Of a stretch of DNA of 40,352 nt, positions 2,070-38,562 are shown piece by piece. This DNA is from Deltaproteobacteria bacterium (GTDB lineage Bacteria > Desulfobacterota > BSN033 > UBA1163). Below the pieces are notes generated by a model, which searched no databases, was not told the DNA's origin, and worked only from the letters and a program-made list of their open reading frames with translations. How positions within the stretch are numbered: position 1 is the first letter of the stretch; each line of letters starts with the position of its first letter. Location: assembly GCA_016874935.1 (NCBI GenBank), contig VGSS01000013.1:1-40352 (forward strand), written 5' to 3'. The translations under genes were made by a program, and so were the position numbers.

Positions 2070-2117
2070 AAATTTCGGATTGCAGATTTGAAAATCTAAA
2101 ATCTGAAATCTAAATTT
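2070..2117. repeat. 7-nt-phased quasi-palindrome (rplW-rplB gap)
   Basis: The stretch runs from AAATTT to AAATTT. It can be cut into degenerate heptamers such as TGAAATC, and the reverse complement of the right half resembles the left half. It fills most of the 70-nt intergenic gap. Confidence 0.6.
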
Positions 2118-2132
2118 AAACGGAGTGAAAAG

Positions 2133-2948
2133 ATGGGTATTAAAAAATTCAGGCCGACTTCTCCCGGAAGGCGGTTTCAGACCGTACATACCTTTGAAGA
2201 GATCACTTCCACCTCACCGGAGAAAAGCCTTCTTCGTCCCTTGAAGAGGACCGGAGGGAGAAACTGTTACGGAAGGGTCACGGCCTGGCACCGGGGCGGT
2301 GGCCACAAGAGGATGTACCGGATCATCGACTTCAAAAGGGATAAGAGGGAGATCCCTGCGAAAGTGGCTTCCGTTGAGTATGATCCCAATCGATCCGCCC
2401 GAATCGCTCTGCTCCACTATGCCGATGGTGAGAAACGATATATTCTCTCCCCGGATCAATTGAAGGTGGGAGATCAGGTGATGGCAAGTTCCGGCGCCGA
2501 TATCAAACCCGGCAATGCTCTCCCCCTGCGAAACATCCCGACGGGTACGCTGATCCACAATGTGGAGCTCAAGATTGGAAAGGGAGGCCAGATCATCCGG
2601 AGCGCAGGCACCAGCGGCCAGCTGATGGCAAAGGAAGGCAAATATGCCCATATCAAACTTCCTTCAGGTGAGGTCCGGTTGATCCTCCAGGACTGTTATG
2701 CCACCATTGGACAGGTGAGCAATTTCGAGCATGAAAATATCTCTTTTGGAAAGGCTGGAAGAACCCGGTGGAAGGGTTGGCGTCCTGTAACCCGTGGAGT
2801 GGCCATGAATCCCATAGACCATCCGCTCGGCGGAGGCGAAGGGAAAAGCTCCGGAGGCCGTCATCCCTGCACTCCCTGGGGCGTTCCGGAGAAAAAGACA
2901 CGCAAGAATAAGAGAACAGACAAATACATCCTGAAGAGGAGAGATTAA
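2133..2948 (+). CDS. rplB: 50S ribosomal protein L2
   Basis: L2 is a universally conserved primary 23S rRNA-binding protein needed for subunit joining and peptidyl transfer. The 271-residue product has family length, an N-terminal RNA-binding half ([20 protein letters not shown]), an SH3-like centre, and the C-terminal [12 protein letters not shown] loop, where many bacteria have HPHGGGEG. The gene follows a 70-nt repeat-filled gap, with a GGAG-type ribosome site upstream. Its TAA shares one base with the rpsS start codon (TAATG). Confidence 0.97.
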
Positions 2949-3238
2949 TGGCCCGATCAATCAAAAAAGGGCCCTTTGTGGATGCCCATTTGAAGACGAA
3001 AGCGGAGGAAGCCCGGAGATTGAGGGAAGGAAGGGTAATCAAAACCTGGTCCAGGCGATCCACCATCATTCCTGAGATGGTCGGCTTAACTTTTGCCGTC
3101 CATAACGGAAAGAAGTTTATTCCAGTCTTCGTTACCGAGGAGATGGTCGGTCATAAGTTAGGGGAATTCTCCCCCACCCGAACCTTCCACGGCCATTCGG
3201 GAGACCGAAAGACAAAGATTAAAGGAAAGACTCCATAA
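2948..3238 (+). CDS. rpsS: 30S ribosomal protein S19
   Basis: S19 is a head protein contacting the A-site finger and S13. The 96-residue product opens [15 protein letters not shown] and contains [14 protein letters not shown] and the [14 protein letters not shown] signature near the C terminus, which make the assignment firm. The ATG overlaps the rplB stop by one base, and rplV follows after 18 nt. Confidence 0.97.
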
Positions 3239-3256
3239 AAGCAAAGGTTGAAGAAG

Positions 3257-3589
3257 ATGGAAGTCAGGGCAAAATTAAAATATGTGCGTGTGGGACCCAG
3301 AAAGGCAAGGTTGGTGGCCGATCTGATACGGGGCAAACGATCCGAGGAGGCCATCCATATCCTTTCGTTCACAAAGAAAGCGGCCGCCAGGGTCATCATC
3401 AAGGTGTTAAAATCGGCCATTGCCAACGCCACGCAGAAGAAGACGTTGGATGTCGACCGTCTTTATGTGAAGAAGATCTCGGTGGATCAGGGGGCGACCT
3501 GGAAAAGGTTTACCCCGCGGGCTCTGGGTCGGGCCACCCCCATCCGGAAGAGGACGAGCCATATCTCCATCGTCCTGGATGAAAAGTGA
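3257..3589 (+). CDS. rplV: 50S ribosomal protein L22
   Basis: L22 contributes the tunnel hairpin and binds all 23S domains. I choose ATG 3257 (110 residues; [19 protein letters not shown]) over the in-frame TTG at 3248, because the AAAGG at 3243-3247 is 9 nt from the ATG but directly abuts the TTG. Family motifs are [15 protein letters not shown] and the basic hairpin [17 protein letters not shown]. The stop lies 14 nt before the rpsC start. Confidence 0.95.
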
Positions 3590-3603
3590 AAGGAGGCGAA
3601 GTC

Positions 3604-4266
3604 TTGGGTCAGAAAGTGCATCCGATAGGTTTTCGACTGGGGTTTATCAAGAGCTGGGATTCCCGATGGTTTGCGGAGAAGGATTATCCCCAACTTCTCA
3701 TTGAGGACATACGGGTCCGCGACTATCTGAAAAAGAAACTTCACCACGCTGGGGTCTCCAAGATTGAAATCGAACGGGCTGCGAGCAAGGCCAAAAAGGC
3801 AAAGGTGACCATCTGGACCGCCCGGCCCGGGATCATCATCGGGAAAAAAGGAGCCGAAGTCGAGAACCTCAAAAGAGAACTTCAAAAGATGACCAAGAAG
3901 GAAATCCTCATCAACATTCAGGAGGTAAAGAGAGCCGAGGTCAATGCCCAGCTGGTGGCTGAGAATGTGGCTCTCCAGCTCGAACGGAGGGTTGGATTTC
4001 GGAGGGCGATGAAGAAATCCGTTTCCTCTGCCATGAAGTTGGGGGCAAAGGGGATTAAAATTGCGGTTTCCGGAAGACTGGGAGGGGCAGAGATGGCCCG
4101 TCATGAGCGGTACCGCGAGGGCCGGGTCCCACTGCATACCCTCCGGGCGGATATTGACTATGGTCTGGCTGAGGCGAAGACCACTTACGGGATCATCGGC
4201 GTGAAGGTATGGATCTTTAAGGGAGAGATCTATCCGACCAGAGAGGGAGACGAGCAAGCCGCCTAA
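3604..4266 (+). CDS. rpsC: 30S ribosomal protein S3
   Basis: S3 lines the mRNA entry channel. TTG 3604 is the likely start (220 residues, [13 protein letters not shown]). It lies 7 nt after a strong AAAGGAGG at 3589-3596, and this is the normal S3 N terminus; a GTG at 3586 would place the ribosome site inside the gene. The KH domain motif appears as [18 protein letters not shown]. The 113 nt downstream contain a quasi-palindromic repeat before rplP. Confidence 0.95.
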
Positions 4267-4276
4267 CCAACAAAGA

Positions 4277-4368
4277 TCATTGAAAATTGTAAAATGTAAA
4301 ATTAGCAGTTTAAATTTACCAATTCGTCAATGCCAACTTCTCAATTTACAATTTATATTTTGCATTGA
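4277..4368. repeat. 7-nt-phased quasi-palindrome (rpsC-rplP gap)
   Basis: The left arm has repeated TGTAAAA-type heptamers. The right arm has complementary ATTTACA-type heptamers, ending TTTTGCATTGA against the opening TCATTGAAAA. It occupies nearly the whole gap and runs up to the rplP ribosome site. Confidence 0.65.
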
Positions 4369-4379
4369 GGTTTAATCAG

Positions 4380-4796
4380 ATGTTGATGCCGAAGAAGACG
4401 AAATATCGAAAGATGCAAACGGGGAAAATGAGAGGAGCCGCTTCCCGCGGGAACAAGCTCAACTTTGGCGACTTCGGGCTTCAGGCCACTGAATGCGGCT
4501 GGTTGAGCTCCCGCCAGATTGAAGCCGCCCGTATTGCCATGACGCGGTTTATCAAGCGGACAGGTCGAATCTGGATTCGCATCTTTCCGAACAAGCCGAT
4601 CACTAAAAAACCCGCGGAGACCCGGATGGGAAAAGGAAAGGGTCCGCCGGAAGACTGGGTGGCTGTCATCCGTCCGGGCAGAATTCTCTATGAGATGGAG
4701 GGGGTCCCGGAGGAGAGGGCGAGAGAAGCCTTTCAACTGGCCTCGCATAAATTGCCCATCTCCACGAGGTTCATCATGAGGGGGAGCCACCCATGA
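4380..4796 (+). CDS. rplP: 50S ribosomal protein L16
   Basis: L16 organises the A-site tRNA region of the large subunit. The start is taken at ATG 4380 (138 residues) because L16 proteins begin MLMPK(K/R), as seen here, and a GAGG lies 10 nt upstream. A TTG at 4365 would add five atypical residues. Conserved parts are [33 protein letters not shown] and the [10 protein letters not shown] segment. The stop overlaps the rpmC start by 4 nt. Confidence 0.95.
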
Positions 4797-4993
4797 AGAC
4801 AAAAGATCTCCGTCTCCTGAGCGAAGGTGAATTGATTCATAAAGAAAAGGAGCTCCATGAGGAACTCTTCAACCTCCGTTTCCAGCATGCCACGGGGCAA
4901 CTGGAGAACACGATGCGAATTCCCCAGGTCAAGCGGGATATCGCCCGGGTAAAGACAATCCTCAAGGGGAAGGTGCCGAGCAAAGGGAAATAA
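4793..4993 (+). CDS. rpmC: 50S ribosomal protein L29
   Basis: L29 is a small two-helix protein beside the tunnel exit next to L23. The 66-residue product has the family pattern: [21 protein letters not shown], then [19 protein letters not shown] (written here in pieces of its two helices) and [16 protein letters not shown] overlap with rplP and a 5-nt gap to rpsQ indicate tight coupling. Confidence 0.95.
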
Positions 4994-4998
4994 GGTCC

Positions 4999-5256
4999 AT
5001 GGAAGAAAGAGGAAAAAGAAAGACATTAACAGGTGTGGTCTCGAGCGAAAAAATGGATAAGACGGTCGTCGTGATGGTCAATCGTCTGGTTCTTCATCCC
5101 GTCTATAAAAAGTATATCCGGAAGAGGACAAAGGTGAAGGCACATGATGAAAAGAACGAGTGTCACATCGGCGACAAGGTCCTCCTGATCGAGACCCGGC
5201 CTCTCAGCAAAGAGAAAAGATGGCGTGTCAAGGAGATCGTTGAACGGGCCGCCTAA
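4999..5256 (+). CDS. rpsQ: 30S ribosomal protein S17
   Basis: S17 is an OB-fold protein binding 16S helices 7 and 11. The 85-residue product shows [14 protein letters not shown] near the N terminus and the signature [20 protein letters not shown]. The ATG lies 5 nt after rpmC. The 105-nt gap that follows holds a GTGGAA-type quasi-palindrome. Confidence 0.96.
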
Positions 5257-5347
5257 AAATGGAAAGTGGAAAGTCGATTGTGGAAGGTGGAGGATAGTTT
5301 GTGAGAAATCATCTATCCACCGGCCACTTACCACATTCTACTCTTGG
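5257..5347. repeat. 7-nt-phased quasi-palindrome (rpsQ-rplN gap)
   Basis: Left heptamers such as AGTGGAA and TGTGGAA are mirrored by right heptamers such as TATCCAC and TTACCAC, with a short AT-rich centre. The arms read CTATCC at corresponding positions on opposite strands. No promoter or gene is visible. Confidence 0.7.
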
Positions 5348-5361
5348 TAATGGAGTTTATT

Positions 5362-5730
5362 ATGATCCAGATGCGGAGTATTCTTGAAGTCGCCGATAAT
5401 TCGGGAGCAAAAAGGTTGGGGTGCATCAAGGTTCTTGGCGGAACACGCCGGAAATATGCGTCTCTGGGCGATGTGATCATCGTCTCCATCAAAGACGCCT
5501 TGCCCAACTCCAAGATCAAAAAGGGAGAGGTCGCTCGAGCGGTTATCGTCCGAACGAAGAAAGAGGTGGAAAGGCCGGATGGTTCCTTTATCAAGTTTGA
5601 TGATAACTCCGCTGTTCTGATCAATCCTCAGGGAGAGCCCATCGGGACCCGAATCTTCGGCCCTGTTGCCAGGGAGCTCCGCGCGAAGCGATTTATGAAG
5701 ATCATCTCGCTGGCTCCGGAGGTTCTGTAA
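5362..5730 (+). CDS. rplN: 50S ribosomal protein L14
   Basis: L14 forms part of inter-subunit bridge B5/B8 and is the RsfS silencing target. ATG 5362 gives exactly the canonical 122 residues starting [20 protein letters not shown], with a GGAG 6 nt upstream. A TTG at 5344 would add six non-family residues. Further conserved pieces are [24 protein letters not shown] and [10 protein letters not shown]. Confidence 0.97.
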
Positions 5731-5750
5731 AGTACAGAAAGGAATTTGGA

Positions 5751-6080
5751 ATGATCGTCTCCAAAACCCATATTAAAAAGAATGACCTGGTCATGGTGAC
5801 CAACGGAAGAGAGAAGGGCAAAAGCGGCCGTGTGCTGAAAGTTCTTCCGGAGAAGGAGAGAGTGATCATTGAAAAGATCAATTTCGTCAAGAGACATTCC
5901 CGGCCTCACGGACAGCAGAAACGGGGAGGGATCCTGGAAAAGGAGGCGCCCCTTCATGTTTCCAACGTGATGCTCCTCTGTGAAAAATGCAACAAACCCG
6001 TCCGGATCGGCCACCGGAGCCTTGAGGGAGGAAAGAAGACACGGTTCTGCAAAAAATGTGGGGAAATTTTTGATAAATAG
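5751..6080 (+). CDS. rplX: 50S ribosomal protein L24 with zinc-ribbon tail
   Basis: L24 is an assembly initiator binding domain I of 23S rRNA. The N-terminal KOW domain is clear ([23 protein letters not shown]). The product is 109 residues and ends in a C-x2-C / C-x2-C ribbon at Cys77, Cys80, Cys100 and Cys103, a form seen in several non-enterobacterial lineages. It lies 20 nt after rplN and 8 nt before rplE. Confidence 0.96.
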
Positions 6081-6088
6081 GTGATACG

Positions 6089-6628
6089 ATGCCCAGAATC
6101 AAAGAAATCTATCAGGAGCGAGCGGTCCCCGCGCTGATGAAACGGTTCAATTACCGGAGCAAGATGGAGGTTCCCAGGCTCGACAAGATCGTCATCAATA
6201 TGGGACTGGGGGAAGCCATTCAGAACATCAAGATCCTCGACTCCGCCGTTCAGGAACTAAACCTCATTACGGGACAGAAAGCCGTCATCACCAAAGCTAA
6301 AAAATCGATTGCCCAGTTCAAATTGAGAACGGGGATGCCCATCGGAGCGAGGGTCACTCTCCGAAAAGAGAGGATGTACGAATTCTTCAATCGTCTGGTG
6401 AATGTTGCTCTACCGAGAGTGAGGGATTTCAAGGGCCTTTCCCCCAAGTCCTTTGACGGAAGGGGAAACTTCGCCCTGGGCATCAGGGAACAGCTTATCT
6501 TTCCGGAGATTCATTACGATAAGATCGACAAGGTGAAGGGGATGAACATCGTCATCGGCACCACCGCCAAAACCGATGAGGAGGGAAAGGAACTCCTGAA
6601 GCTGCTCGGAATGCCCTTCAGGAATTAA
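6089..6628 (+). CDS. rplE: 50S ribosomal protein L5
   Basis: L5 binds 5S rRNA and contacts the P-site tRNA and S13. The 179-residue length matches the family. Diagnostic stretches are [15 protein letters not shown], the [20 protein letters not shown] region and [15 protein letters not shown]. The gap to rpsN is 50 nt and contains a perfect GC-rich palindrome. Confidence 0.97.
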
Positions 6629-6630
6629 AA

Positions 6631-6660
6631 AACGCTAAGCGCTTAGCGCATTGCGCATGG
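6631..6660. repeat. GCGC heptamer repeat with 16-bp perfect palindrome (rplE-rpsN gap)
   Basis: CGCTAAGCGCTTAGCG at 6633-6648 is its own reverse complement. The stretch continues as GCGCATT and GCGCATG heptamers. It lies just before the rpsN ribosome site and appears to be a short member of the phased-repeat class. Confidence 0.6.
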
Positions 6661-6678
6661 CGATGTTAGGAGGATGAA

Positions 6679-6864
6679 TTGGCGAAACTCTCATTGATGA
6701 ATAAGGCAAAGCAAAAGCAGAAATTCCAGGTCCGCCAGTACAACCGTTGCCCTCTCTGTGGAAGGCCGAGGGCCTTTATTCGGAAATTTAGTATGTGCCG
6801 TCTCTGTTTCAGAAAATATGCCACCCGGGGTGAGATCCCCGGCGTGATCAAAGCCAGCTGGTAA
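6679..6864 (+). CDS. rpsN: 30S ribosomal protein S14, zinc type
   Basis: S14 completes the 30S head. The 61-residue product is the short zinc-binding form (type Z), with Cys24, Cys27, Cys40 and Cys43 in two CxxC pairs ([10 protein letters not shown] and SMCRLCFRK). The start is TTG 6679, five nt after an AGGAGG; the ATG at 6674 is out of frame. rpsH follows after 17 nt. Confidence 0.96.
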
Positions 6865-6881
6865 CCCCTACGGAGTTTGTT

Positions 6882-7280
6882 ATGTCGATGACCGATCCAT
6901 TGGCCAATATGTTCACGCTCATCCGAAATGCGTCCAAAGCCAGGTTCGAAAAGGTGGATGTCCCCTACTCCAAGATGAAGCATGAGATTGTTAAGATTTT
7001 AAAAGAGGAAGGGTTCGTCGCCAATTTCAAAGTCGTTAAGGATGAGAAAGAACATCAGTTGATTCGAATCGTTCTCAAATATGATACGACCCGGAAAGGA
7101 CTCATCCATATCAAGCGGGTGAGCAAACCGGGCCGAAGGGTCTATGTCGGAACCGATCGGATCCCCTCTGCCATGAGCGGCTTGGGAATCTCGATTGTCT
7201 CCACACCCAAAGGGCTCCTGACCGATAAAGCGGCACGGAAAGCCCATATGGGCGGAGAGGTTCTCTGTTATGTCTGGTAG
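6882..7280 (+). CDS. rpsH: 30S ribosomal protein S8
   Basis: S8 is a primary 16S central-domain binder and, in Escherichia coli, the spc-operon translational repressor. The 132-residue product starts [17 protein letters not shown] and ends with the signature [20 protein letters not shown], giving a secure call. The next 168 nt are a repeat-filled gap, the longest within the operon. Confidence 0.97.
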
Positions 7281-7282
7281 GT

Positions 7283-7438
7283 GGAGGAAATCGGGTGATC
7301 AGGAAATCAGTATGGAGGATAGCAGGGAATCAGGATATCGGGAGGAATTAGTAACATCTTTGATCAACCTAATATCCTGGTGTTCTGAGAACCAACACCT
7401 GATGACCTGATAATCTGATATCCTGAAATCTTTAATTT
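7283..7438. repeat. 8-nt-phased quasi-palindrome (rpsH-rplF gap)
   Basis: The left arm (about 7290-7350) consists of degenerate octamers of the type ATCAGGAA. The right arm (about 7367-7431) consists of octamers such as CTGATGAC and CTGATATC, broadly complementary to the left. This is the longest such element in the window, and the unit is 8 nt rather than 7. Confidence 0.7.
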
Positions 7439-7448
7439 TGAGGGAGAT

Positions 7449-7985
7449 ATGTCTCGTATTGGAAGAATGCCGATTCAATTGCCGAAGGAAGTGAAAATCT
7501 CCTGTGATCCTTCGAAAATAGAGGTGGCCGGGCCCAAAGGGACCCTCGCCTGCGACCTTCCCCGTGGCATCGCAGTCTCGGTGGATGGGGGGAAGGTGCT
7601 CATTCAGAGGGAGCGGGAAGAGCGATCATTAAGAGCCCTTCATGGCCTGACCCGGAGTCTGATTGCCAATATGGTGACAGGGGTCACGCAGGGATTTGAG
7701 AAGAAACTGGAGATCATTGGCGTTGGCTTCCGTGCGGATATACAGGGAAATCTTCTCAAACTCAGCCTGGGGTTCTCCCATCCGGTTCTCTTCCCCGTTC
7801 CGGAAGGAATTAATATCCAGGTGGAGAAGCAGACCCTGATCACCGTGAGAGGGGTGAACAAACAGCTGGTGGGGACTATCGCCGCCAAACTCCGCTCGCT
7901 CAAACCCCCTGAGCCTTATAAGGGAAAAGGGGTTCGCTACCTCGGAGAAAAGATTCGCAAGAAGGTCGGCAAGACAAAAGCCTAA
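7449..7985 (+). CDS. rplF: 50S ribosomal protein L6
   Basis: L6 sits near the factor-binding (GTPase) centre. The 178-residue product begins [12 protein letters not shown], contains two L6 folds (VAGPKGTL in the first; the second around [13 protein letters not shown]) and ends with the [14 protein letters not shown] signature followed by a basic tail. A GAGGGAG-type site precedes the ATG. rplR follows 20 nt downstream. Confidence 0.97.
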
Positions 7986-8005
7986 GGAGAAGGAAGTTTT
8001 TTAAA

Positions 8006-8368
8006 ATGGAAAATAAGAAGATCCTGGCAAGAATGAAGAGAAAGAAGCGGGTGCGGAGCTGCATCCGGGGAATATTGGAAAAACCTCGCCTCAATGTCTT
8101 CAGGAGCCCGAAACATATCTATGCCCAGGCCATTGTGGATTCCACGGGAAAAACAGTGGCCAGCGCTTCTACATTGAGCCCTGAGTTAAAAGGGAACCTC
8201 CGTTATACGGGAAATGTCGAGGCGGCGAAGAAGGTGGGAGAACTCATTGCCAGGAAATGTCTTGAGAAAGGAATCCAAACAGTCGTTTTTGACCGCAGTG
8301 GGTATCTCTATCACGGAAGGGTCAAGGCATTGGCGGAAGCGGCGAGAGCAGGTGGCTTGGTCTTTTAG
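8006..8368 (+). CDS. rplR: 50S ribosomal protein L18
   Basis: L18 delivers 5S rRNA to the large subunit together with L5. The 120-residue product has the basic N terminus, the [14 protein letters not shown] strand motif and the C-terminal [20 protein letters not shown] signature. The 77 nt that follow contain short CTCAAG/CTTGAG complements and then the strong rpsE ribosome site. Confidence 0.97.
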
Positions 8369-8445
8369 AAGGTTTCTGAAAAAGTCTCAAAACCTCAAGA
8401 GGGCATGGTGTCGTTCTTGAGAGTTCTCTTTAGGAGGGAGTGACA

Positions 8446-8940
8446 TTGCCGAAGATTGATCCAAGCACACTGGAATTGACAGACCGAGTCATTAATATCA
8501 GCCGGGTGGCCAAAGTGGTCAAGGGCGGAAGACGGTTCAGTTTTAGCGCCCTAGTCGTCGTTGGAGATGGCCATGGCCATGTCGGGAGCGGACTGGGAAA
8601 GGCCAACGAGGTTCCGGAGGCCATTCGGAAGGCGGTCGAACATGCGAAACGTGACTTGATGAAGGTCCCCCTTATCAACAAGACGATCCCCTACGAGGTT
8701 ACAGGAAAATTCGGGGCCGCTCGGATCCTGATGAAGCCGGCCTCTGAAGGAACAGGGGTGATTGCCGGGGCGGTGGTGAGAGCCATTGCCGAGTCCGCAG
8801 GGATTGAAAACATTCTGACCAAATCTCTGGGATCAAACAATCCTTACAACCTCATCAAGGCGACCCTTCAGGCCATCCATCAATTGAAATATCCGGAAGA
8901 GGTGCTTCAAAAGAGGGCTGAAAAAGAGATCGGGAACTGA
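8446..8940 (+). CDS. rpsE: 30S ribosomal protein S5
   Basis: S5 contributes to decoding fidelity and the mRNA entry helicase. TTG 8446 (164 residues, [18 protein letters not shown]) is preferred: an AGGAGG at 8432-8437 lies 8 nt away, whereas the in-frame GTG at 8440 touches that site. The double-stranded-RNA-binding N domain shows [19 protein letters not shown], and the C domain shows [14 protein letters not shown]. rpmD follows after 10 nt. Confidence 0.95.
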
Positions 8941-8950
8941 GGACGCGCTG

Positions 8951-9151
8951 ATGAAGAAGATGGAAAATGGGATGGACAAGAAGGTGACGGTCAGGTGGAA
9001 AAAAAGTGCGATCGGACGGCCTGAAGGTCAGAAGAAGATCATTAAGGCGCTCGGTTTTAGACGGTTGAATCAAACCCTCACCCTCCCGGATCATCCTGGG
9101 ATCCGGGGGATGATTAACCATGTGTCCCATCTGGTCGAAGTGATCGAATGA
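8951..9151 (+). CDS. rpmD: 50S ribosomal protein L30
   Basis: L30 is a small large-subunit protein found in many but not all bacteria. The family core reads VTVRWKKSAIGRPEGQKK then LGFRRLNQTLTLPDHPGIRG. ATG 8951 has a TGAGGA site 7 nt upstream and gives 66 residues. ATG 8972 (MDKKVTVRW, 59 residues) would match the usual length better but has a weaker ribosome site, so the N terminus is uncertain by seven residues. Confidence 0.9.
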   Translation: MKKMENGMDKKVTVRWKKSAIGRPEGQKKIIKALGFRRLNQTLTLPDHPGIRGMINHVSHLVEVIE

Positions 9152-9167
9152 GGGAAAGGAAAGCGTG

Positions 9168-9611
9168 ATGATTCTCGAAGAGCTTAAGCCACCGGAGGGA
9201 TCAAGAAAGAAGAGAAAGCGAGTGGGAAGGGGAACAGGGTCCGGCCACGGAAAGACGGCCTGCAAGGGACACAAGGGCCAGAATGCCCGTGCCGGCAGGG
9301 GGACAAAGGCAGGATTTGAGGGAGGCCAGATGCCCCTTCAGAGACGGCTTCCTAAAAGAGGATTCCGGAACCCTTTCAGGGAAAAGGTGACCATCATCCA
9401 TCTTCGAGATCTCAATCGTTTCGAGAAGGATGCAGTGGTTGATCCCGATCTCCTGTCCGCATCCGGTCTGTGTAAAAAAGGAGAGCTCATCAAACTTCTC
9501 TCCGACGGGGAACTCCAGCATCCCATGACCATCCGTGTTCATCGGGTGAGCCAGGCGGCGCTCACAAAAGTGGAGATGGCCTCAGGGAGGGTGGAGGTCA
9601 TCGGTTCATGA
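9168..9611 (+). CDS. rplO: 50S ribosomal protein L15
   Basis: L15 is a late-assembly protein threading through 23S rRNA. The 147-residue product starts [15 protein letters not shown] and has the glycine-rich extension ([19 protein letters not shown]) and [17 protein letters not shown] motif. ATG 9168 is favoured over GTG 9165 by its 7-nt spacing from AAAGGA. The stop overlaps the secY ATG as ATGA, the common coupling in spc operons. Confidence 0.96.
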
Positions 9612-10936
9612 TTTCAGGCGCCCAGAATATTTTTAAGATCCCTGAGCTGAAACGAAGGATCCTGATGACCCTTCTCCTTCTGGCCATCTATCGGGTCGGG
9701 GTCCACATCCCTACTCCCGGGATCAATGGAGATGCTCTCGCCTCCTTCTTCGCCCATGCGAAGGGAACCCTCTTCAGCCTCATCGATATGTTCTCGGGAG
9801 GAGCCCTGGAAAGGCTTTCTGTCTTTGCCCTGGGCATCATGCCCTATATCAGCGCTTCGATCATCCTCCAGCTTCTCACCGTCGTCATTCCCTATCTGGC
9901 TCAGCTCCAGAAGGAAGGAGAGATCGGACGGAAGAAGATCATTCAATATACCCGTTATGGAACAGTGGTTCTCAGCATGATCCAGGGATTCGGGATCGCG
10001 GTTGGCCTGGAGAATATGACAGGGGCCGCCGGTGAGATGATCGTTCTCAATCCGGGATGGTCCTTCCGGATTATGACCGTGATCACCCTGACCGCGGGCA
10101 CCGCCTTCATCATGTGGCTGGGCGAACAGATTACGGAGAGGGGAATCGGAAACGGCATCTCCCTCATCATCTTTTCGGGTATCGTGGCAAGACTGCCAAA
10201 CGCCATTGCAGGCACCTATGAACTGTTTCGAGTGGGGCAGTTAAACATCTTCACCATTCTCTTCTTGATCGTCCTGATGGTGGCCGTCATTGCGGCGATC
10301 ATCTTTGCCGAGACGAGCCAGAGGAGGCTTCCTGTTCAATATGCCAAACGGATTGTGGGAAGGAAAGTCTACGGAGGACAGAGCACCCATCTCCCGCTCA
10401 AGTTAAACACTGCGGGGGTCATTCCTGCCATCTTCGCCTCATCCATTCTGATGTTTCCTCTGACGATCGCCAGCTTTGTGCCGAAGGCCTTGATGGAGAC
10501 TTATCCCTGGATCCAGTCGATCCTCAACAGTCTCGGCCCCGATGCGATCCTCTATAATCTTCTCTATGTGGGTTTCATCATCTTCTTCTGTTTCTTCTAT
10601 ACGGCGGTCACCTTCAACCCGAACGATGTGGCCGACAACATGAAGAAATTTGGGGGATATATCCCGGGCATCCGGCCCGGTCAGAAGACAGCTGAGTATA
10701 TCGACAAGGTCCTCACCCGCATCACCCTTGGAGGAGCCCTCTATGTTTCGGCGGTCTGTGTACTGCCCACCATTCTGGTCGGGAGGTTCAACGTCCCCTT
10801 CTATTTCGGAGGAACAGCCCTCCTCATTGTCGTGGGAGTGGCTCTGGACACGGTTCAGCAGATTGAGGCTCATATGTTGACCAGACATTATGAGGGATTG
10901 ATGAGGAAGGGCAAATTGAAAGGCAGAAGAGGATAA
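9608..10936 (+). CDS. secY: Protein translocase subunit SecY
   Basis: SecY is the channel of the SecYEG translocon. The 442-residue product has the expected ten hydrophobic segments; the plug region and TM2 are visible as [20 protein letters not shown]. Cytoplasmic loop signatures include QLTVV-type TM3 context, GERGIGNG-like [11 protein letters not shown], and [14 protein letters not shown] before TM9. Translation is coupled to rplO. A 129-nt gap with a phased quasi-palindrome separates it from adk. Confidence 0.97.
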
Positions 10937-10941
10937 ATAAA

Positions 10942-11046
10942 AATCATTGCAAATTGGAAATTGAAAAATGAAAATGGATCATTTTAAAGAGAGGGTCAAA
11001 AACTTTACAATTTGCAATGTTAAATTTGCATTTTGCATTGATCCTT
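10942..11046. repeat. 7-nt-phased quasi-palindrome (secY-adk gap)
   Basis: Left heptamers such as ATTGCAA and ATTGGAA are mirrored by right heptamers such as TTTGCAA and TTTGCAT. The outer ends read AATCATTGC on the left and GCATTGATCC on the right. It ends about 20 nt before the adk start codon. Confidence 0.65.
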
Positions 11047-11065
11047 AAGTGGTCGGTGACGCTGG

Positions 11066-11719
11066 ATGAACTTAATTCTCTTGGGTCCTCCGGGGGCGGG
11101 AAAAGGCACCCAGGCACAGATGATCGTGGAACGTTATCATCTCCCTCAAATTTCCACGGGGGATATCCTTAGGGCCGCCGTGAGGGAAGGGACGTCTTTG
11201 GGGAAACAGGCCAAGGCTTTTATGGACAGGGGCGAGCTTGTTCCGGATGAAGTGGTGATCGGTATCATTGACGAACGGTTGAGGACGCCGGATTGCAAGA
11301 CCGGTTTTATCCTCGATGGATTTCCGAGAACAACCCCTCAGGCCGAGGCCCTTCAGGCCATCCTCGTCAAAATCGAAAAAGCGGTGGACCATGTCATCAA
11401 CATTGAGGTCGATCCCGAGGAACTGGTACGGCGGCTGACCGGCCGCAGGACCTGCAAAAACTGCGGAGGGATGTTCCACAACCTCTTTCATCCCCCCCAG
11501 AAGGAAGGCGTCTGTGACCGTTGTGGCGGATCCCTTTACCAGAGAGAGGACGATAGGGAAGAGACGATTCGAACCCGACTCAAGGAATATAAGAAACAGA
11601 CTGCTCCTCTCATCCAGCATTATCAGAATAAGAAACTCCTTCGTTCGATCCGGGGGATGGGTGGACAGAATCAAATTTTTGAGCAGATCATTCGCGTCCT
11701 GGACGCGAAACCTATTTGA
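11066..11719 (+). CDS. adk: Adenylate kinase
   Basis: Adk interconverts ATP + AMP and 2 ADP. The 217-residue product has the P-loop GPPGAGKGT at 7-15, the AMP-binding STGDILR and DGFPRT motifs, and a long LID carrying a zinc site (Cys130, Cys133, Cys150, Cys153). The ribosome site before ATG 11066 is weak. It sits in the standard secY-adk position, but the usual next gene, map, is missing and infA follows after 21 nt. Confidence 0.97.
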   Translation: MNLILLGPPGAGKGTQAQMIVERYHLPQISTGDILRAAVREGTSLGKQAKAFMDRGELVPDEVVIGIIDERLRTPDCKTGFILDGFPRTTPQAEALQAILVKIEKAVDHVINIEVDPEELVRRLTGRRTCKNCGGMFHNLFHPPQKEGVCDRCGGSLYQREDDREETIRTRLKEYKKQTAPLIQHYQNKKLLRSIRGMGGQNQIFEQIIRVLDAKPI

Positions 11720-11740
11720 GGAGGCAAGCGGAGTCAATCG

Positions 11741-11959
<219 letters not shown>

Positions 11960-11960
11960 G

Positions 11961-12006
11961 AAATCCCCCTCACCCAATTGTGATACAGTCTCCAAAGGGG
12001 GGATTT
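11961..12006. repeat. C5/G5 palindromic repeat (infA-rpmJ gap)
   Basis: AAATCCCCC at 11961-11969 pairs with GGGGGATTT at 11998-12006. The loop contains GATACAGTCTCC, which recurs with small changes in both arms of the element at 28.1-28.3 kb. It can form a 9-bp-stem hairpin in the operon mRNA. Confidence 0.65.
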
Positions 12007-17988: not shown

Positions 17989-19232
17989 GAAAGAGGGTTG
18001 TCGTCACAGGCATGGGGGTTGTAAGTGCGGTGGGGAACAGTGTCCCTGAATTCTGGAATTCCCTCGTCGAGGGAAAAGATGGGGCAAAGGAAATTACGGT
18101 CTTCGATGCTTCTCCCTATCGGACAAGGATTGCCTGCGAGGTCGTTGGGTTGGACCTTGGGGCCCACTTCTGGAAAAAGGAGGCTCGAAGACTTTCCCGA
18201 TGTGACCAGTTTGGATTAGTTGCCTTCAGGGAAGCCTGGGGAACAGCCCGCTTTGATCAGAATCCGGTCAATAAAGAAAGAGCAGGAGTTGTATTAGGAG
18301 CAGGATCAGGAGGGATCCTCTCGGTTGAAAAGTATTTCAGGGATTTTTATCAGGGAAAGGGGAGGCCTTCCCCTTCCCTTCTCATCTCTTATTCCCTCGC
18401 CACCACCACCGACCTCATCGCCATTGAATCAGGGCTGAAAGGTCCCCGGACGACCACCGCAACGGTCTGTTCTTCAAGCTCTGCTTCGATTGGTGTGGCC
18501 TACGACCTGATTCAAATGGGCCTGGCCGATGCGGTGGTGACGGGTGGAAGCGACTCCCTTTGCGAGGTCTCCTACAGCGGATTCAGCAGTCTGAAGTTGG
18601 TCGATCCCGAAGGTTGCAGGCCCTTTGATAAAAGGAGGCAGGGACTGATCATCGGCGAAGGAGCAGGCATTCTCATTCTGGAAGAATTAGGACATGCCCT
18701 GAGAAGGGATGCTTTGATCCACGCTGAGTTTTTAGGATACGGGATCTGCGCCGACGCCTATCATCTCACGGCACCTGAACCCAATGGAGAGGGTGTGGAA
18801 AGGGTGATAAGAGGCGCATTATCTCATGCTGGAGTCTCACCGGAAGAAGTCGATACGATCAATGCCCATGGCACGGCCACGCCTTTCAATGACATCGCTG
18901 AGACGAGAGGTATCAAGAGGGTGTTCGGAGAAAGAGCAAAGGAGGTTCCCATCAGCGGGATCAAGTCGATGGTGGGACACTGTCTGGGCTCAGCGGGGGG
19001 GATCGAAGCAGTGGCAACGGTTCTGACAATAAAAAACGGAGTCATCCCTCCCACGATTCACTATGAAGTGCCTGATCCCCATTGCGATCTCAACTATACG
19101 CCGAATCGTTCGATGAAAAAGGATGTTCGAGTCGCCATTTCAAACTCCTTTGCCTTCGGTGGAAATAATGTCTGTTTGGTGTTTGGGAAATACATTTCAA
19201 ATGCGGAATGCGGAGTGCGGAATGCGGAATAA
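17985..19232 (+). CDS. Beta-ketoacyl-ACP synthase (KS-alpha, FabF-like)
   Basis: The enzyme condenses an acyl thioester with malonyl-ACP. The 415-residue product carries the full catalytic set: Cys162 in TVCSSSSAS, His295 in NAHGTATP, and His332 with Lys327 in KSMVGHCLGSAGG. It is coupled to the LolA-like gene upstream and to a catalytically dead partner downstream, as in type II polyketide or aryl-polyene systems. No ACP, ketoreductase or dehydratase gene is in the window, so those would come from elsewhere. The last residues (NAECGVRNAE) are encoded by an AATGCGG heptamer repeat, not by family sequence. Confidence 0.9.
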   Translation: MRKRVVVTGMGVVSAVGNSVPEFWNSLVEGKDGAKEITVFDASPYRTRIACEVVGLDLGAHFWKKEARRLSRCDQFGLVAFREAWGTARFDQNPVNKERAGVVLGAGSGGILSVEKYFRDFYQGKGRPSPSLLISYSLATTTDLIAIESGLKGPRTTTATVCSSSSASIGVAYDLIQMGLADAVVTGGSDSLCEVSYSGFSSLKLVDPEGCRPFDKRRQGLIIGEGAGILILEELGHALRRDALIHAEFLGYGICADAYHLTAPEPNGEGVERVIRGALSHAGVSPEEVDTINAHGTATPFNDIAETRGIKRVFGERAKEVPISGIKSMVGHCLGSAGGIEAVATVLTIKNGVIPPTIHYEVPDPHCDLNYTPNRSMKKDVRVAISNSFAFGGNNVCLVFGKYISNAECGVRNAE

Positions 19233-19267
19233 AAATCCGAAATCCGAAATCCAAACTCCGAACTCCC
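19196..19267. repeat. 7-nt-phased quasi-palindrome at the KS-alpha/KS-beta junction
   Basis: Four AATGCGG-type heptamers (19199-19226) are followed by roughly complementary ATCCGAA-type heptamers (to 19267). It encodes the C terminus of one synthase and the N terminus of the next. Confidence 0.75.
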
Positions 19268-26903: not shown

Positions 26904-26909
26904 AGTCTC

Positions 26910-27035
26910 TGGGTTAAGGTCAGGGTAAGGATGCCGGTTTCGTAGTTGGGTTAGGGTAATGGGTTTTAAGTCATTAGCCATAACCTTTACCCTTTGACCA
27001 AACTGGCTTCCTAACCTTAACCCCAACCCAAAACC
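26910..27035. repeat. Phased quasi-palindrome (GGGTTA-type) after radical SAM gene
   Basis: The left arm (26911-26970) is rich in GGGTTAAGG and GGGTAA words. The right arm (26979-27034) is rich in the complementary CCTTAACCCC and TTTACCC words. Reverse-complementing the right arm gives GGTTAAGGTTAGG against GGTTAAGGTCAGG on the left, with later stretches (GCCNGTTT, GGGTAA) also matching. Confidence 0.75.
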
Positions 27036-27056
27036 GCAAAATGGTTGTCAAAACGG

Positions 27057-28101: not shown

Positions 28102-28132
28102 TTTCGGAATTCGGATTGCGGAATGCGGAATC
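28102..28132. repeat. Single-arm 7-nt-phased repeat after lemA
   Basis: Degenerate heptamers ATTCGGA, TTGCGGA and ATGCGGA run in phase right after the LemA stop. The unit resembles the AATGCGG unit at 19.2 kb. No complementary arm of equal length follows directly. Confidence 0.6.
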
Positions 28133-28308: not shown

Positions 28309-28328
28309 AATAAAGTGAGGAGAGAAAG

Positions 28329-31238: not shown

Positions 31239-31291
31239 TCCTCTTTTTTTCTGCTTAAGATCCTCATTTTATTAGCTGCTTTTTCCTATTA

Positions 31292-31390
31292 GGATTCAAG
31301 GGGTCAAGGGGCCAAGGGTTCCAGTAAGAAATTAAATAAAAATTTTTTAAAATCACTTGAATCCTTGAACCCTCGACCTCTTGGACCTTT
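31292..31390. repeat. 8-nt-phased quasi-palindrome (TCAAGGGG-type)
   Basis: The left arm has GATTCAAG, GGGTCAAG units in 8-nt phase. The right arm has TCCTTGAA and CCCTCGAC units, broadly complementary, with an AT-rich centre. Confidence 0.7.
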
Positions 31391-34413: not shown

Positions 34414-34470
34414 ATTCGCCATTTCCAATTTTCAATTCTTAACTCTCAACTCATAACTCTTAACCCATCT
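34414..34470. repeat. Single-arm 7-nt-phased repeat
   Basis: AACTCTC, AACTCAT, AACTCTT and related heptamers run in phase after the J-protein stop, ending just before the Lon promoter. Only one arm is visible. Confidence 0.55.
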
Positions 34471-34507: not shown

Positions 34508-34551
34508 TAAACCCGAAAGAGTCCGTTATCTGAACCAGGAGGAAAAGGATT

Positions 34552-37035: not shown

Positions 37036-37813
37036 AATCGTTCTCGATCAAAAGGTTGTCATCGGGGAAGAAGTGATCCTCGAAGGGCCTCCTCTGGAGG
37101 CCCTTCGCTTTCAGGGGGGCCGTGTGGGCAGCATCCTCACCCTGACCGATTCTGAAGGGAAGGACTTCAGGGGGAGAGTTCTTCGACTCTCCGGAAAAAA
37201 GGCTTCTGTTCTCACCTTTGAAACTTTTCAATCCCCCACAGAATCACCTCTTGAAATTATCCTTCTTCAAGCACTCCCGGAAAAGGAGAGGATGGAACTG
37301 ATCATCCAGAAGGCAACCGAGCTGGGTGTTTCAACGATCGTCCCTTTTAAGTCCGAGAAGTCTATTTCACTGGAGGAGAGGGAGACTAAACAAAAGAAGG
37401 CTCACCGTTGGCAGGAAATTGCCATCAAGGCGGTCCAGCAGTCGAGAAGAGCAGGGGTGCCCAAAATAGAGAATTATCGGTCCATTGAAGAAGCGCTCGG
37501 ATATTGCCGTGAAGAAGGATTGAAGATCCTCCTCTGGGAGAAAGAGGGTGAAAGCCTCAGAGATGTCCTAAAAAGATTTTCCACATTACATCCCCCCTTT
37601 GGAAAAGAGGGGGAGGGGGGATTTAAGACTAATCACCCGGGAAGAGTCTACATTATGACCGGGCCCGAAGGGGGATTTTCCGGAGAGGAAGTGACATTGG
37701 CCAAAAACCAAGGATTCATACCCGTTAAACTGGGCCAACGAATTTTAAGAACCGAGACCACCGCTATCACTCTGGTTGGAATTCTACAATACGAACTGGG
37801 TGACCTTGGTTAA
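37028..37813 (+). CDS. rsmE: 16S rRNA m3U1498 methyltransferase RsmE
   Basis: RsmE methylates U1498 near the decoding centre. The 261-residue product starts MDRIVLDQKVVIGEEV (PUA-like N domain; ATG 37028 overlaps the Lon gene end by 8 nt) and has the SPOUT knot motifs YIMTGPEGGFSGEEV and LGQRILRTETTAITLVGIL. Mid-protein residues HPPFGKEGEGGFKTNH are encoded by a C6/G6 palindrome that looks like an intergenic repeat inserted in frame, lengthening the variable linker between LLWEKEGESLRDVLKRFS and the catalytic end. Confidence 0.94.
   Translation: MDRIVLDQKVVIGEEVILEGPPLEALRFQGGRVGSILTLTDSEGKDFRGRVLRLSGKKASVLTFETFQSPTESPLEIILLQALPEKERMELIIQKATELGVSTIVPFKSEKSISLEERETKQKKAHRWQEIAIKAVQQSRRAGVPKIENYRSIEEALGYCREEGLKILLWEKEGESLRDVLKRFSTLHPPFGKEGEGGFKTNHPGRVYIMTGPEGGFSGEEVTLAKNQGFIPVKLGQRILRTETTAITLVGILQYELGDLG
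37590..37622. repeat. C6/G6 palindrome inside rsmE
   Basis: ATCCCCCC (37590-37597) pairs with GGGGGGAT (37615-37622) around CTTTGGAAAAG-like loop sequence. It is in frame and encodes Pro-Pro-Phe-Gly-Lys-like residues. It is similar to the C5/G5 element at 11961-12006. Confidence 0.65.
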
Positions 37814-37873
37814 TTTTCAATATATACCCATCCTCCTATCCCGTCAAACCCCGGATTCTTCTGCAATGGGTCA

Positions 37874-37902
37874 TTGACAGGCCCCGTTTAATTTGTTAAC
37901 TT
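37874..37902 (+). promoter_or_regulatory. Promoter of biotin transporter operon
   Basis: A perfect TTGACA (37874-37879) is followed after 17 nt by TAACTT (37897-37902). The -10 lies inside the left arm of the BirA-type operator, so repressor binding would block polymerase. Confidence 0.5.
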
Positions 37903-37924
37903 TTATTAATATAAAGGTTAACAA
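37893..37924 (+). promoter_or_regulatory. BirA-type biotin operator upstream of bioY
   Basis: TTGTTAAC (37893-37900), 16-nt AT-rich spacer, GTTAACAA (37917-37924): a perfect inverted repeat. The published bacterial BirA signal is of the form TTGTWAACC-N14/15-GGTTWACAA, so this fits closely. It ends 21 nt before the bioY start and implies repression when biotin is plentiful. Confidence 0.8.
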
Positions 37925-37945
37925 TTAATGTTCAAGGAGCTTTCT

Positions 37946-38488
37946 ATGCCCGTTGAAAAGCTGAGATGGATCGTTCTTTCCTCCCTGATGGCAGGTCTGA
38001 TGGCCGTAGGAGCCTACATCCATGTGCCGATCGGACCTGTTCCCATCGTTCTGACAAACCTCTTTGTCCTTCTTGCAGGTCTTCTTCTAGGGAGCCGCTG
38101 GGGGACCGCCAGCGCAGGCCTCTATCTCTTTGTGGGAGCCATTGGCGTGCCCGTCTTTTATGGCGGCAAAGGAGGGCTGGCCCATCTATTGGGCCCAACC
38201 GGAGGTTACCTCTTCGGATTTGTTCTCTGTGCCTGGATCACTGGTTTCATCTCCGAACGATTCCGCTACTCTATGATTGGAGGGGTTATCGGGGTCATCA
38301 TCGGATCGCTCGCCGTCTACGGCCTTGGAGTTCCATGGCTTAAGATGATCACCAAAATGTCGTGGAACAAGGCATGGATGATCGGGATGTTTCCCTTTCT
38401 TATTGGAGATGCACTGAAGGCCGCAGTTGCCATCATTCTGGCCCGTGCCGTTAGGCCTATGTTGAATCGTCAACACATGAACGAATAG
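37946..38488 (+). CDS. bioY: Biotin ECF transporter S component
   Basis: BioY is the membrane protein that binds biotin. The 180-residue product has about six membrane helices and the BioY landmarks MAVGAYIHVPIGPVPIVLTN, LLGSRWGTASAGLYLFVGAIG, GGLAHLLGPTGGYL and FLIGDALKAAVAIILARAV. ATG 37946 is chosen for the AAGGAG 8 nt upstream; ATG 37928 would put that site inside the gene. ATPase and T-component genes follow. Confidence 0.95.
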   Translation: MPVEKLRWIVLSSLMAGLMAVGAYIHVPIGPVPIVLTNLFVLLAGLLLGSRWGTASAGLYLFVGAIGVPVFYGGKGGLAHLLGPTGGYLFGFVLCAWITGFISERFRYSMIGGVIGVIIGSLAVYGLGVPWLKMITKMSWNKAWMIGMFPFLIGDALKAAVAIILARAVRPMLNRQHMNE

Positions 38489-38562
38489 TTCGAATGATAA
38501 CGAATTTTACGAATGCAAAGAACTTTCGATTCACTCGCTGTCATTCGTTATATTCGTTTAGC
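38482..38562. repeat. 9-nt-phased quasi-palindrome (ACGAATTTT-type) after bioY
   Basis: Left: GATAACGAATTTTACGAATG. Right: CATTCGTTATATTCGTTTAG, close to the reverse complement. The unit seems to be 9 nt. It lies between bioY and the ATPase gene and may replace a normal ribosome site. Confidence 0.65.

What the first reader, a model, noticed from the sequence alone, without database searches (positions are those of the whole stretch)
2070..38562. A family of locus-specific, 7/8/9-nt-phased quasi-palindromes in intergenic gaps
At least twelve gaps (2070, 4277, 5257, 6631, 7283, 10942, 19196, 26910, 28102, 31292, 34414, 38482) contain low-complexity sequence built from degenerate units of constant length. 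Most have a left tandem arm, a short centre and a right arm of complementary units. Unit length is mostly 7 (8 at 7283 and 31292, 9 at 38482), and the unit sequence is unrelated between loci. Ordinary REP, MITE or VNTR families keep the sequence and vary the copy number. Here the architecture is kept and the sequence is free, which points to a generating process (for example template-switching or snap-back synthesis of short words) rather than copying of one element. Five of the six ribosomal-operon gaps longer than about 90 nt that I checked carry one or another repeat. I know of no established name for this class.
Basis: partly seen in the sequence, partly recalled or inferred. Interest (0 to 1): 0.85.

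Follow-up and report, generated by a model that had tools for sequence, protein, structure and literature searches.

The report
Phased-word hairpin repeats between genes
Many gaps between genes in this uncultured bacterium hold hairpin-forming repeats built from 7- or 8-letter DNA words; about a dozen words share one architecture, they look like scattered copies rather than locally invented sequence, and different words occupy the same gap in sister species.

Summary
The periodicity is real and genome-wide. In 568 gaps from 840 kb of the 3.05 Mb genome, lag-7 self-similarity is 23.6 sd above dinucleotide shuffles; runs at lags 7, 8 and 14 exceed shuffles 12- to 25-fold, other lags far less. 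Of the 12 listed gaps, 10 are phased at P<=0.003; the period-9 locus is not.

'Sequence is free' needs correcting. Seventy-one phased palindromes fall into about a dozen word families shared between loci and species, alignable end to end where examined. Own arms match no better than arms of other copies (6 of 53 best; chance 8), against snap-back copying. Still, CGAA, CCAA and CTAA elements share one ~134-bp architecture and differ at one word letter changed together at up to eight sites, and orthologous ribosomal gaps carry different families in sister species.

The 5' arm is purine-rich in 59 of 71 (pyrimidine-rich in 4). Palindromes start a median 7 nt after stop codons, favour co-directional gaps and recur patchily across the phylum.

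Best reading: MITE-like foldback repeats of the heptamer type known from Xanthomonas and Nostoc, with many words, spread in trans by an unidentified enzyme. Function, mobiliser and origin of words are unknown.

The parts
2070..2117 (.). rplW-rplB gap: period-7 quasi-palindrome, word GATT/AATC
   Evidence: array 2072-2114, score 16, P=0.001; hairpin 17 pairs, P=0.007; orthologous gaps in G001 and G004 look like the same word, other words in G002, G003, G005, G007, G011, G013, G015, G016 (by eye)
4272..4373 (.). rpsC-rplP gap: period-7 quasi-palindrome, word AATTG/AAATGNA; mismatches recur about every 7 bp in the consensus helix
   Evidence: arrays 4279-4302 and 4342-4366; P=0.003 and hairpin 34 pairs; consensus fold of 5 orthologues
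5257..5343 (.). rpsQ-rplN gap: period-7 quasi-palindrome, word GGAAAGT/ACTTTCC
   Evidence: P=0.001, hairpin P=0.013; same family aligned in 8 relatives
6630..6662 (.). rplE-rpsN gap: period-7 array of GCGCTTA-like units; no separate right arm
   Evidence: P=0.001; hairpin P=0.38
7285..7435 (.). rpsH-rplF gap: period-8 quasi-palindrome, word ATCAGGNN; dispersed family
   Evidence: P=0.001, 37 pairs; 14 matches in the whole genome (self included), 16 in G002 (one place on both strands), 10 in G007, 0 in G001, G003, G004, G008, G009
10938..11047 (.). secY-adk gap: period-7 quasi-palindrome, word AATTGNA
   Evidence: P=0.001, 29 pairs; gap 87% identical to G014 of another genus while 4-fold sites are 43% identical
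19202..19266 (.). period-7 quasi-palindrome, word GGAATGC/GCATTCC, spanning the junction of the called genes 17985-19232 and 19222-20490
   Evidence: score 34, P=0.001; profile hit; gene calls
26904..27044 (.). quasi-palindrome GGTTAAGG/CCTTAACC; period 6/7 weak
   Evidence: P=0.015, hairpin 38 pairs
28103..28131 (.). period-7 array, word GGATTGC/GGAATGC, followed by an unrelated REP-like palindrome
   Evidence: P=0.001; array; sequence
31291..31388 (.). period-8 quasi-palindrome, word TCAAGGGN
   Evidence: P=0.002, 36 pairs; same family at about 11 loci of the 840 kb sample
34414..34464 (.). single period-7 array of YTAACTC-like units, no partner arm
   Evidence: score 22, P=0.001; hairpin P=0.91
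38480..38558 (.). quasi-palindrome AACGAAT/ATTCGTT; claimed period 9 not significant
   Evidence: hairpin P=0.007, period P=0.17

Best explanation
These are dispersed, non-coding foldback repeats of about 65-160 bp in roughly a dozen word families. Shown: each palindromic element is a run of 7- or 8-nt units (a conserved 4-6-nt word plus a 1-3-nt free spacer), a loop, and a run of mostly complementary units; in this genome the 5' arm is nearly always the purine-rich one; elements favour gaps between co-directional genes, starting a few nt after a stop codon; families recur at unrelated loci and in other species, and orthologous ribosomal gaps of relatives hold different families. Inferred: they spread by copying of whole elements, mobilised in trans by an unidentified enzyme, and survive where a hairpin just behind a stop codon is tolerated in the polycistronic mRNA. 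Inferred: the word is kept near-uniform across units and arms by continuing selection or correction, because word positions stay conserved while spacers drift; new families arise when the word of an existing architecture changes at many units. Which enzyme moves them, how the word changes, and whether the hairpin serves the host are not shown.
For: Families with multiple copies: 46, 23, 23, 19, 19, 15, 11 and 9 near-full-length copies for eight seeds over 1.83 Mb from this genome and relatives; the CAAATG and CCAAT sets partly overlap the CGAA set. Non-orthologous copies within the genome reach 89% identity over 142 nt. Family-by-species presence: the ATCAGG element has 14, 16, 10, 5 and 1 matches in G000, G002, G007, G005 and G006 and 0 in the other 13 genomes searched. 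Word positions conserved, spacers not: conservation peaks at lag 7 or 8 among lags 6-9 in six of six families tested (of eight), and pairing along the helix likewise (weak in family A, 0.23). R-left 59 against Y-left 4 and neutral 8, while unphased hairpins are 36/32/14. Co-directional 106 of 390 gaps, convergent 8 of 50, divergent 4 of 70; 66 co-directional palindromes start a median 7 nt after the stop and end a median 24 nt before the next start. RNA folding z median -4.6. TGGAATNN x3 found in 20 of 198 genomes of the phylum, patchily, up to 56 overlapping matches in one genome.
Against: No target-site duplication, terminal tag or mobilising gene was found; the first two were looked for by eye only. 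Y1 transposase genes (RAYT-like) are numerous here (13) and absent from the element-poor congener G008, but G018, G020 and G023 have 4-8 of them with no phased array in 12-32 kb samples, and G001 has one with many arrays. No pair of phased gaps shares a stretch of 50 nt or more above 90% identity, so no recent burst is seen; pairs with one gap not flagged as phased reach 98% over 58 nt and were not inspected. Elements in orthologous gaps of different genera can be 83-89% identical although 4-fold sites are 40-47% identical, which simple decay of dead copies does not predict. The word is not strictly uniform: 17 of 38 fully scored copies of the CGAA/CCAA/CTAA set have one word throughout, 21 have at least one deviating unit. 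CGAA and CCAA families share an architecture, which pure copying does not explain without a word-changing step.
Confidence: 0.5

Rival explanations
1. Host-functional intercistronic elements: a long purine-5'/pyrimidine-3' RNA hairpin with regular mismatches is selected just after stop codons (mRNA stabiliser, ribosome or Rho insulator, or internal promoter), and the word is a by-product of selection for pairing.
For: Strong bias to co-directional gaps and position right after the stop; R-left rule; folding z median -4.6; cross-genus conservation of some gap elements (83-89%) against saturated 4-fold sites; one compensatory C-G to T-A change in the rpsC-rplP hairpin; promoter-like sites are enriched in 1-12000 (20 against 7.2, sd 2.7) and nine lie in or touch phased gaps.
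Against: Pairing selection would let each unit pair drift to its own word; instead units of an element mostly share one. Deviating letters are not compensated in the partner (59 of 84, 57.0 expected). Ribosomal gaps in G008, G017, G031 and G033 largely lack such elements, and close relatives differ in family. The promoter-like matches may only reflect the A+T-rich words.
Confidence: 0.2
2. Locus-by-locus growth and homogenisation of short tandem units (slippage plus hairpin-guided correction), as for heptanucleotide repeats in cyanobacteria: no mobility, concerted evolution in place.
For: Unit arrays with gradual word shifts along one array (L100:1170-1307); orthologous rplW-rplB element with CGAA words in G002/G007, mixed CTAA/CGAA in G011 and G013, mostly CTAA in G015, with a similar upstream hairpin in four of the five; word letter correlated over all eight unit sites (phi 0.50-0.87).
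Against: Unit-specific spacers and the phase jump in mid-arm are kept between copies at unrelated loci, which de novo growth at each locus would not reproduce; families are shared between loci and species.
Confidence: 0.2
3. One reading: template switching or snap-back synthesis that writes the right arm from the left arm of the same element.
For: Quasi-palindromes in 73 of 117 tested phased gaps exceed all 20 shuffles; template switching can create and maintain hairpins (PMC8794818, title and start of abstract in a search listing only).
Against: Own right arm is the best complement of the own left arm in 6 of 53 cases, 8.0 by chance; permuting arms between copies changes nothing in five of eight families and little in A and J; in B the excess sits mainly at the word letter; single deviations are not mirrored.
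Confidence: 0.08

Closest known systems
Heptamer G-rich repeats (GGGANTN)n of Xanthomonas and GGGGA(C/T)T of Nostoc (PMC4692102; abstract, passages and sections 10 and 14 read)
   Same: 7-nt degenerate units, intergenic, mostly between aligned genes and rare between divergent ones, nearer the upstream than the downstream gene; in Xanthomonas 70 and 75 pairs in convergent orientation that could form stem-loops (by my reading the G-rich arm comes first, as here)
   Different: One word type per genome described, explained by G-quadruplexes; here about a dozen words, most without G-runs, palindromes are common, and words differ between relatives at one gap
Degenerate heptanucleotide stem of the Nostoc trnL(UAA) intron P6b (PMC4476775; abstract and passages read), and STRR repeats of heterocystous cyanobacteria (recalled)
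   Same: A stem built of 7-nt degenerate words (TDNGATT or NNTGAGT); one word class replaces the other at the same site while the structure is kept; TNNGATT resembles the word at window 2070-2117
   Different: Two words at one intron site, against about a dozen words at many operon gaps
TAACTGA direct repeats of Beggiatoaceae, cyanobacteria and Bacteroidetes (PMC4679880; abstract and passages read)
   Same: 7-nt intergenic repeats, some before ribosomal protein genes
   Different: Direct repeats (169 sets and one indirect repeat), not palindromes; one fixed word
GGGACCG x4 elements of Geobacter metallireducens, 49 sites (PMC2700814; passages read)
   Same: Heptanucleotide units, dispersed in the genome
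   Different: One word, four units
REP/REPIN-RAYT elements (PMC3116915, PMC3733652; titles and abstract starts in a search listing only)
   Same: Dispersed intergenic palindromes without coding capacity; RAYT-like Y1 genes are present here
   Different: REPs are 20-40 bp palindromes, many GTAG- or CGTC-tagged; these are about 65-160 bp and phased, and no tag was seen by eye

Membership tests
Degenerate heptanucleotide intergenic repeats (STRR / heptamer type) | Tandem 7-nt units in non-coding DNA, far above chance | tested here: met
   period 7: 115 runs against 4.6 shuffled in gaps; coding sequence 5.1 after scaling to the same length
Degenerate heptanucleotide intergenic repeats (STRR / heptamer type) | One or a few defined words per genome (as in the described cases) | tested here: not met
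   ten clusters of three or more among 71 palindromes, plus 12 single ones; 8-nt units as well
Xanthomonas-type heptamer inverted repeat | Between co-directional genes, close to the upstream stop, rare between divergent genes | tested here: met
   27% of co-directional, 16% of convergent and 6% of divergent gaps of 60 nt or more; median 7 nt after the stop
Xanthomonas-type heptamer inverted repeat | G-tracts able to form quadruplexes | tested here: not met
   most words have no G-run of three: CGAAA, CCAAT, CAAATG, AATTG, GGAAAGT; no folding test was run
REP/REPIN with RAYT | 20-40 bp palindrome with GTAG/CGTC tag | tested here: not met
   consensus lengths 69-138 bp; no such tag at the consensus ends by eye, no systematic tag search
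REP/REPIN with RAYT | Linked, co-distributed RAYT (Y1) gene | tested here: inconclusive
   Y1 13 in G000, 0 in element-poor G008, but present in array-poor samples of G018, G020, G023; 4 of 13 Y1 genes of G000 inspected within 260 bp: one (L134:13547-14482) has a phased array about 60 bp away on one side, a second (L140) has a period-15 run beside it, none shows elements on both sides
MITE | Terminal inverted repeats plus target-site duplication and a cognate transposase | tested here: inconclusive
   palindromic and dispersed; no duplication noticed by eye in orthologous gaps, no systematic test; no cognate found
Quasi-palindromes made by template switching | Arms of one element more alike than arms of different elements | tested here: not met
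   6 of 53 against 8.0 by chance
Rfam RNA families | Match above a gathering score | tested here: not met
   no match in the window to 4227 families
Intrinsic terminators | GC-rich stem plus T-run at the elements | tested here: not met
   16 terminator-like sites in 1-12000, 16.9 expected in shuffles; two, both on the minus strand at 6630-6649, lie in a phased gap

The most novel reading that the evidence does not exclude
A class of foldback repeats in which architecture (7/8-nt phase, mid-arm phase jump, purine-first arm, periodic mismatches) is the heritable unit and the repeated word is a rewritable parameter: some enzyme or hairpin-guided correction process changes a word letter at the units of both arms while sparing unit-specific spacers, so that lineages carry different vocabularies on one architecture.
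Probability: 0.17. Interest if true: 0.87.

Novelty: new variant of a known kind. Interest (0 to 1): 0.55.

Why it matters
The paper I read on heptameric repeats (PMC4692102) says that they are over-represented in bacteria but that reports on 6-9-nt repeats are rare. Here a single genome carries about a dozen word families obeying the same rules, with different families at one ribosomal gap in relatives and a word letter changed at several sites on a retained architecture. That turns 'low-complexity intergenic filler' into a testable system: what moves it, what keeps the word near-uniform, and whether a hairpin behind a stop codon matters to operon expression. It also warns that gap sequence in these genomes need not track the genes beside it.

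Tried and rejected
Snap-back copying of one arm from the other: rejected as the main process. Reverse transcriptase as generator: RVT_1 was not found in G000, G001 and G002, which have the elements, so not required (incomplete genomes). SbcCD loss as the permissive factor: SbcD matched in 3 of 16 f1 genomes searched (one over the cut-off), absent with or without elements, so it does not discriminate. MutS loss: MutS1 above the cut-off in 24 of 25 genomes. Y1/RAYT as mobiliser: suggestive in G008 only, not consistent elsewhere. Intrinsic terminators, Rfam families, tRNA: no. Promoters: 20 promoter-like sites in 1-12000 against 7.2 (sd 2.7), nine in or touching phased gaps; not followed up, may reflect base composition. 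Compensatory evolution: one double change among 30 predicted pairs at rpsC-rplP and 4 of 21 pairs at rpsQ-rplN, too little to prove RNA selection. Avoidance of complementarity in spacers: slightly lower than unit-shifted partners in most families, too small to claim. The R-left rule is not general: in L009 one of three hairpin-positive gaps is strongly Y-left and the others are near neutral.

Limits: gene calls are my own hexamer-based calls; some genes are missed and some 'gaps' hold them. G000 was sampled (840 of 3045 kb); relatives were sampled at 11-213 kb each, in many cases mostly the ribosomal region, which may not be typical. In one search only pairs with gap identity of at least 0.70 were printed, so any lack of relation between gap identity and species divergence rests on a truncated set. 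Word assignment is by eye, and not every relative had both flanking genes. The CGAA alignment was built iteratively and drew in CCAA and CTAA copies; one search tested that against a profile of CGAA copies alone (18 of 19 above all 20 unit-shuffled decoys, but only 14 of 19 above their own reverse complement, so much of what is shared is symmetrical architecture). Cluster number depends on the cut-off 0.55 (10 clusters of three or more and 12 singletons, some not of this class and one an ATCAGG element).
Full report
What was checked. The window is contig 13 of an unnamed 3.05 Mb draft genome; the nearest named records by ribosomal protein L5 are uncultured 'Deltaproteobacteria' and 'Syntrophaceae' MAGs (four at 95-87% identity). 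It begins with an S10/spc ribosomal operon (gene names by my reading of order and size). I called genes with a hexamer model, sampled 840 kb of the genome and fetched the ribosomal region of 20 relatives, further stretches of relatives and 80 named ribosomal loci.

Periodicity. Over 568 gaps of 40-600 nt (101 kb) self-match at lag 7 is 0.290 against 0.260 in shuffles (z=23.6), lag 8 z=14.0, lag 14 z=12.3, lag 6 z=10.2, lag 5 z=9.1; coding sequence is raised at lags 3, 6, 9 and not at 7. Runs of score >=9 number 115 at period 7 (4.6 in shuffles), 61 at 8 (5.0), 89 at 14 (4.2), 24 at 6 (5.9), 19 at 15 (2.7); periods 9-13 give 7-14 (3.7-5.2). At score >=10, 171 runs at periods 7, 8, 14, 15, 16 lie in 126 of 568 gaps. 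The twelve named gaps are judged one by one under the observation check.

Palindromes and the purine-first arm. Of 507 gaps up to 320 nt, 165 carry a hairpin better than all 20 shuffles (24 expected): 73 of 117 phased gaps and 92 of 390 others. In the 71 phased ones with 12 or more pairs the left arm is purine-rich in 59, pyrimidine-rich in 4, neutral in 8; in 82 unphased ones the figures are 36, 32, 14. So the phased class is coherent. RNA folding of the 71 gives median z=-4.6, 87% below -2.

Families. The 71 cluster by arm similarity into groups of 11, 10, 7, 6, 6, 5, 4, 4, 3, 3 and 12 singletons. Profile searches from eight seeds over 1.83 Mb from this genome and relatives give 46 (CGAA), 23 (GGAAAGT), 23 (CAAATG), 19 (ATCAGG), 19 (CCAAT), 15 (TGGAAT), 11 (GGAWTKC) and 9 (TCAAGGG) near-full-length copies, with consensus lengths of 69-138 bp; some copies are shared between the related CGAA, CCAAT and CAAATG sets. 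Conservation within a family is itself periodic, peaking at 7 or 8 among lags 6-9 in the six families tested. Non-orthologous copies in the genome reach 89% over 142 nt; no pair of phased gaps exceeds 90% over 50 nt, but pairs with one unflagged gap do.

Arms are not copies of each other. Among 53 elements in families of four or more, the own right arm is the best complement of the left arm in 6 (8.0 by chance). Permuting right arms between copies leaves pairing unchanged or slightly better in families K, F, I, D, E (own-arm z -2.1 to 0.3 for Watson-Crick pairs) and slightly worse in A and J (own-arm z=2.3, 2.2); in B z=4.7, due mainly to the word letter.

Word change on one architecture. The CGAA profile drew in elements whose word is CCAA or CTAA. 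In the joint alignment of 46 copies the second word letter is canonical at all or all but one of eight sites in 24 copies, changed at 6-8 in 19 and at an intermediate number in 3; correlations between the eight sites are 0.50-0.87 within and across arms. A profile of the 24 CGAA copies alone scores 18 of the 19 others above all 20 unit-shuffled decoys, but only 14 of 19 above their own reverse complement: the shared part is largely the symmetrical architecture. Of 38 copies scored at all eight sites 17 have one word throughout; in the 21 others single deviating units are not mirrored in their partner (59 of 84 matches, 57.0 expected). At the rplW-rplB gap G002 and G007 have CGAA, G011 and G013 mix CTAA and CGAA, G015 mostly CTAA; G007, G011, G013 and G015 have a similar upstream hairpin, G002 does not.

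Turnover. In orthologous ribosomal gaps different relatives carry different families; for example rpsC-rplP has AATTG words in G000, G001, G002, G005, G013, TGGAAT words in G003, G007, G016, CGAA in G011, AGTTCAAA in G012, AAGGTTTAGG-like in G015, an unclear sequence in G004, and nothing similar in G008, G017, G031, G018, G033 (by eye; the other relatives lacked one of the genes). Elements at one gap may be 83-89% identical between genera while 4-fold sites are 40-47% identical, without a matching rise in the flanking genes. Close relatives (4-fold 0.87-0.92) may differ by 23-30% at a gap (G000-G006 and G005-G006) or be 94% identical (G000-G006 at rplE-rpsN) (only pairs with at least 0.70 gap identity were listed). 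Near copies of the rpsC-rplP element lie at other loci of G001 and G006. I cannot tell constraint from lateral exchange here.

Place. 106 of 390 co-directional, 8 of 50 convergent and 4 of 70 divergent gaps of at least 60 nt are phased; the 66 co-directional palindromes start a median 7 nt after the stop codon and end 24 nt before the next start. Single arrays without a palindrome show no strand preference (14 R, 13 Y, 10 neutral).

Distribution. Runs at periods 7 and 8 per 10 kb of gap: 13.7 in this genome, 11.6-37.8 in 13 of 16 other genomes of its family, 3.6 in G004, 4.5 in G010, 0.7 in G008; none in small samples of G017, G018, G020, G023, G033; 11.8 in G022 and 5.2 in G031 on two runs each. 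Small samples mislead: TGGAATNN x3 has 19 matches in the whole of G017 and occurs in 20 of 198 genomes of the phylum, up to 56 overlapping matches (G191), with none in G008, G004 and G010; the backward control hit one genome. For AGCTTAN x3, a word seen in locus L009, one genome of 198 matched; its backward control, which happens to be a CGAA-like word (ATTCGAN x3), hit 11 genomes, up to 34 times. In 76 other ribosomal loci (those shorter than 6 kb skipped) there are 19 period-7 and 4 period-8 runs in 596 gaps, against a mean of 10.0 for other periods; of the 20 runs printed, 16 lie in L009 and L011, two deltaproteobacterial MAGs with their own words. In L009 one hairpin is Y-left. On 200 kb of a Trichormus plasmid period-7 runs are 7 against 0.7, two of them in one purine-first hairpin.

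Interpretation. Copying of whole elements explains families, dispersal and patchy sharing; it needs an unknown mobiliser. A near-uniform word with free spacers needs continued selection or correction. The closest described repeats are the heptamer repeats of Xanthomonas and Nostoc (PMC4692102) and the Nostoc trnL P6b stems in which one heptanucleotide word replaces another at a site (PMC4476775). I found no description of many word families with one architecture in one genome in seven answered literature searches of open-access papers; subscription papers were not searchable.

Noticed in passing
L139:1083-1239, L129:18431-18586, L093:11054-11240; ribosomal gaps of G007, G008, G011: Short GC-rich palindromes (GGTCC..GGAC-GCTTCGCCC and others) are inserted at a recurrent point in the right arm of CGAA elements.
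   Followed up: no
window 28134-28310: REP-like palindrome with CTGAGCCTGTCGAAGGGC and a second outer inverted repeat beside the phased array.
   Followed up: no
window 19202-19266: A repeat lies across the end of one called gene and the start of the next, which overlap there.
   Followed up: partly
L009, L011: Two other deltaproteobacterial MAGs carry phased heptamer repeats in the ribosomal region with different words (AGCTTAT, GTTTTCC, AGCTGTC), one hairpin with the pyrimidine arm first.
   Followed up: partly
L100:1170-1307: A single-arm array of about 115 nt whose unit drifts from GACGATG to AACAATG along its length.
   Followed up: no
window 1-12000: Promoter-like sites are found 20 times against 7.2 in shuffles, nine of them in or touching phased gaps.
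   Followed up: no
G012 contigs 9, 11, 59, 70, 73, 77, 81, 130, 134, 199, 224: Equal-scoring Y1 transposase fragments, several at contig edges, suggesting a multicopy element that broke the assembly.
   Followed up: no
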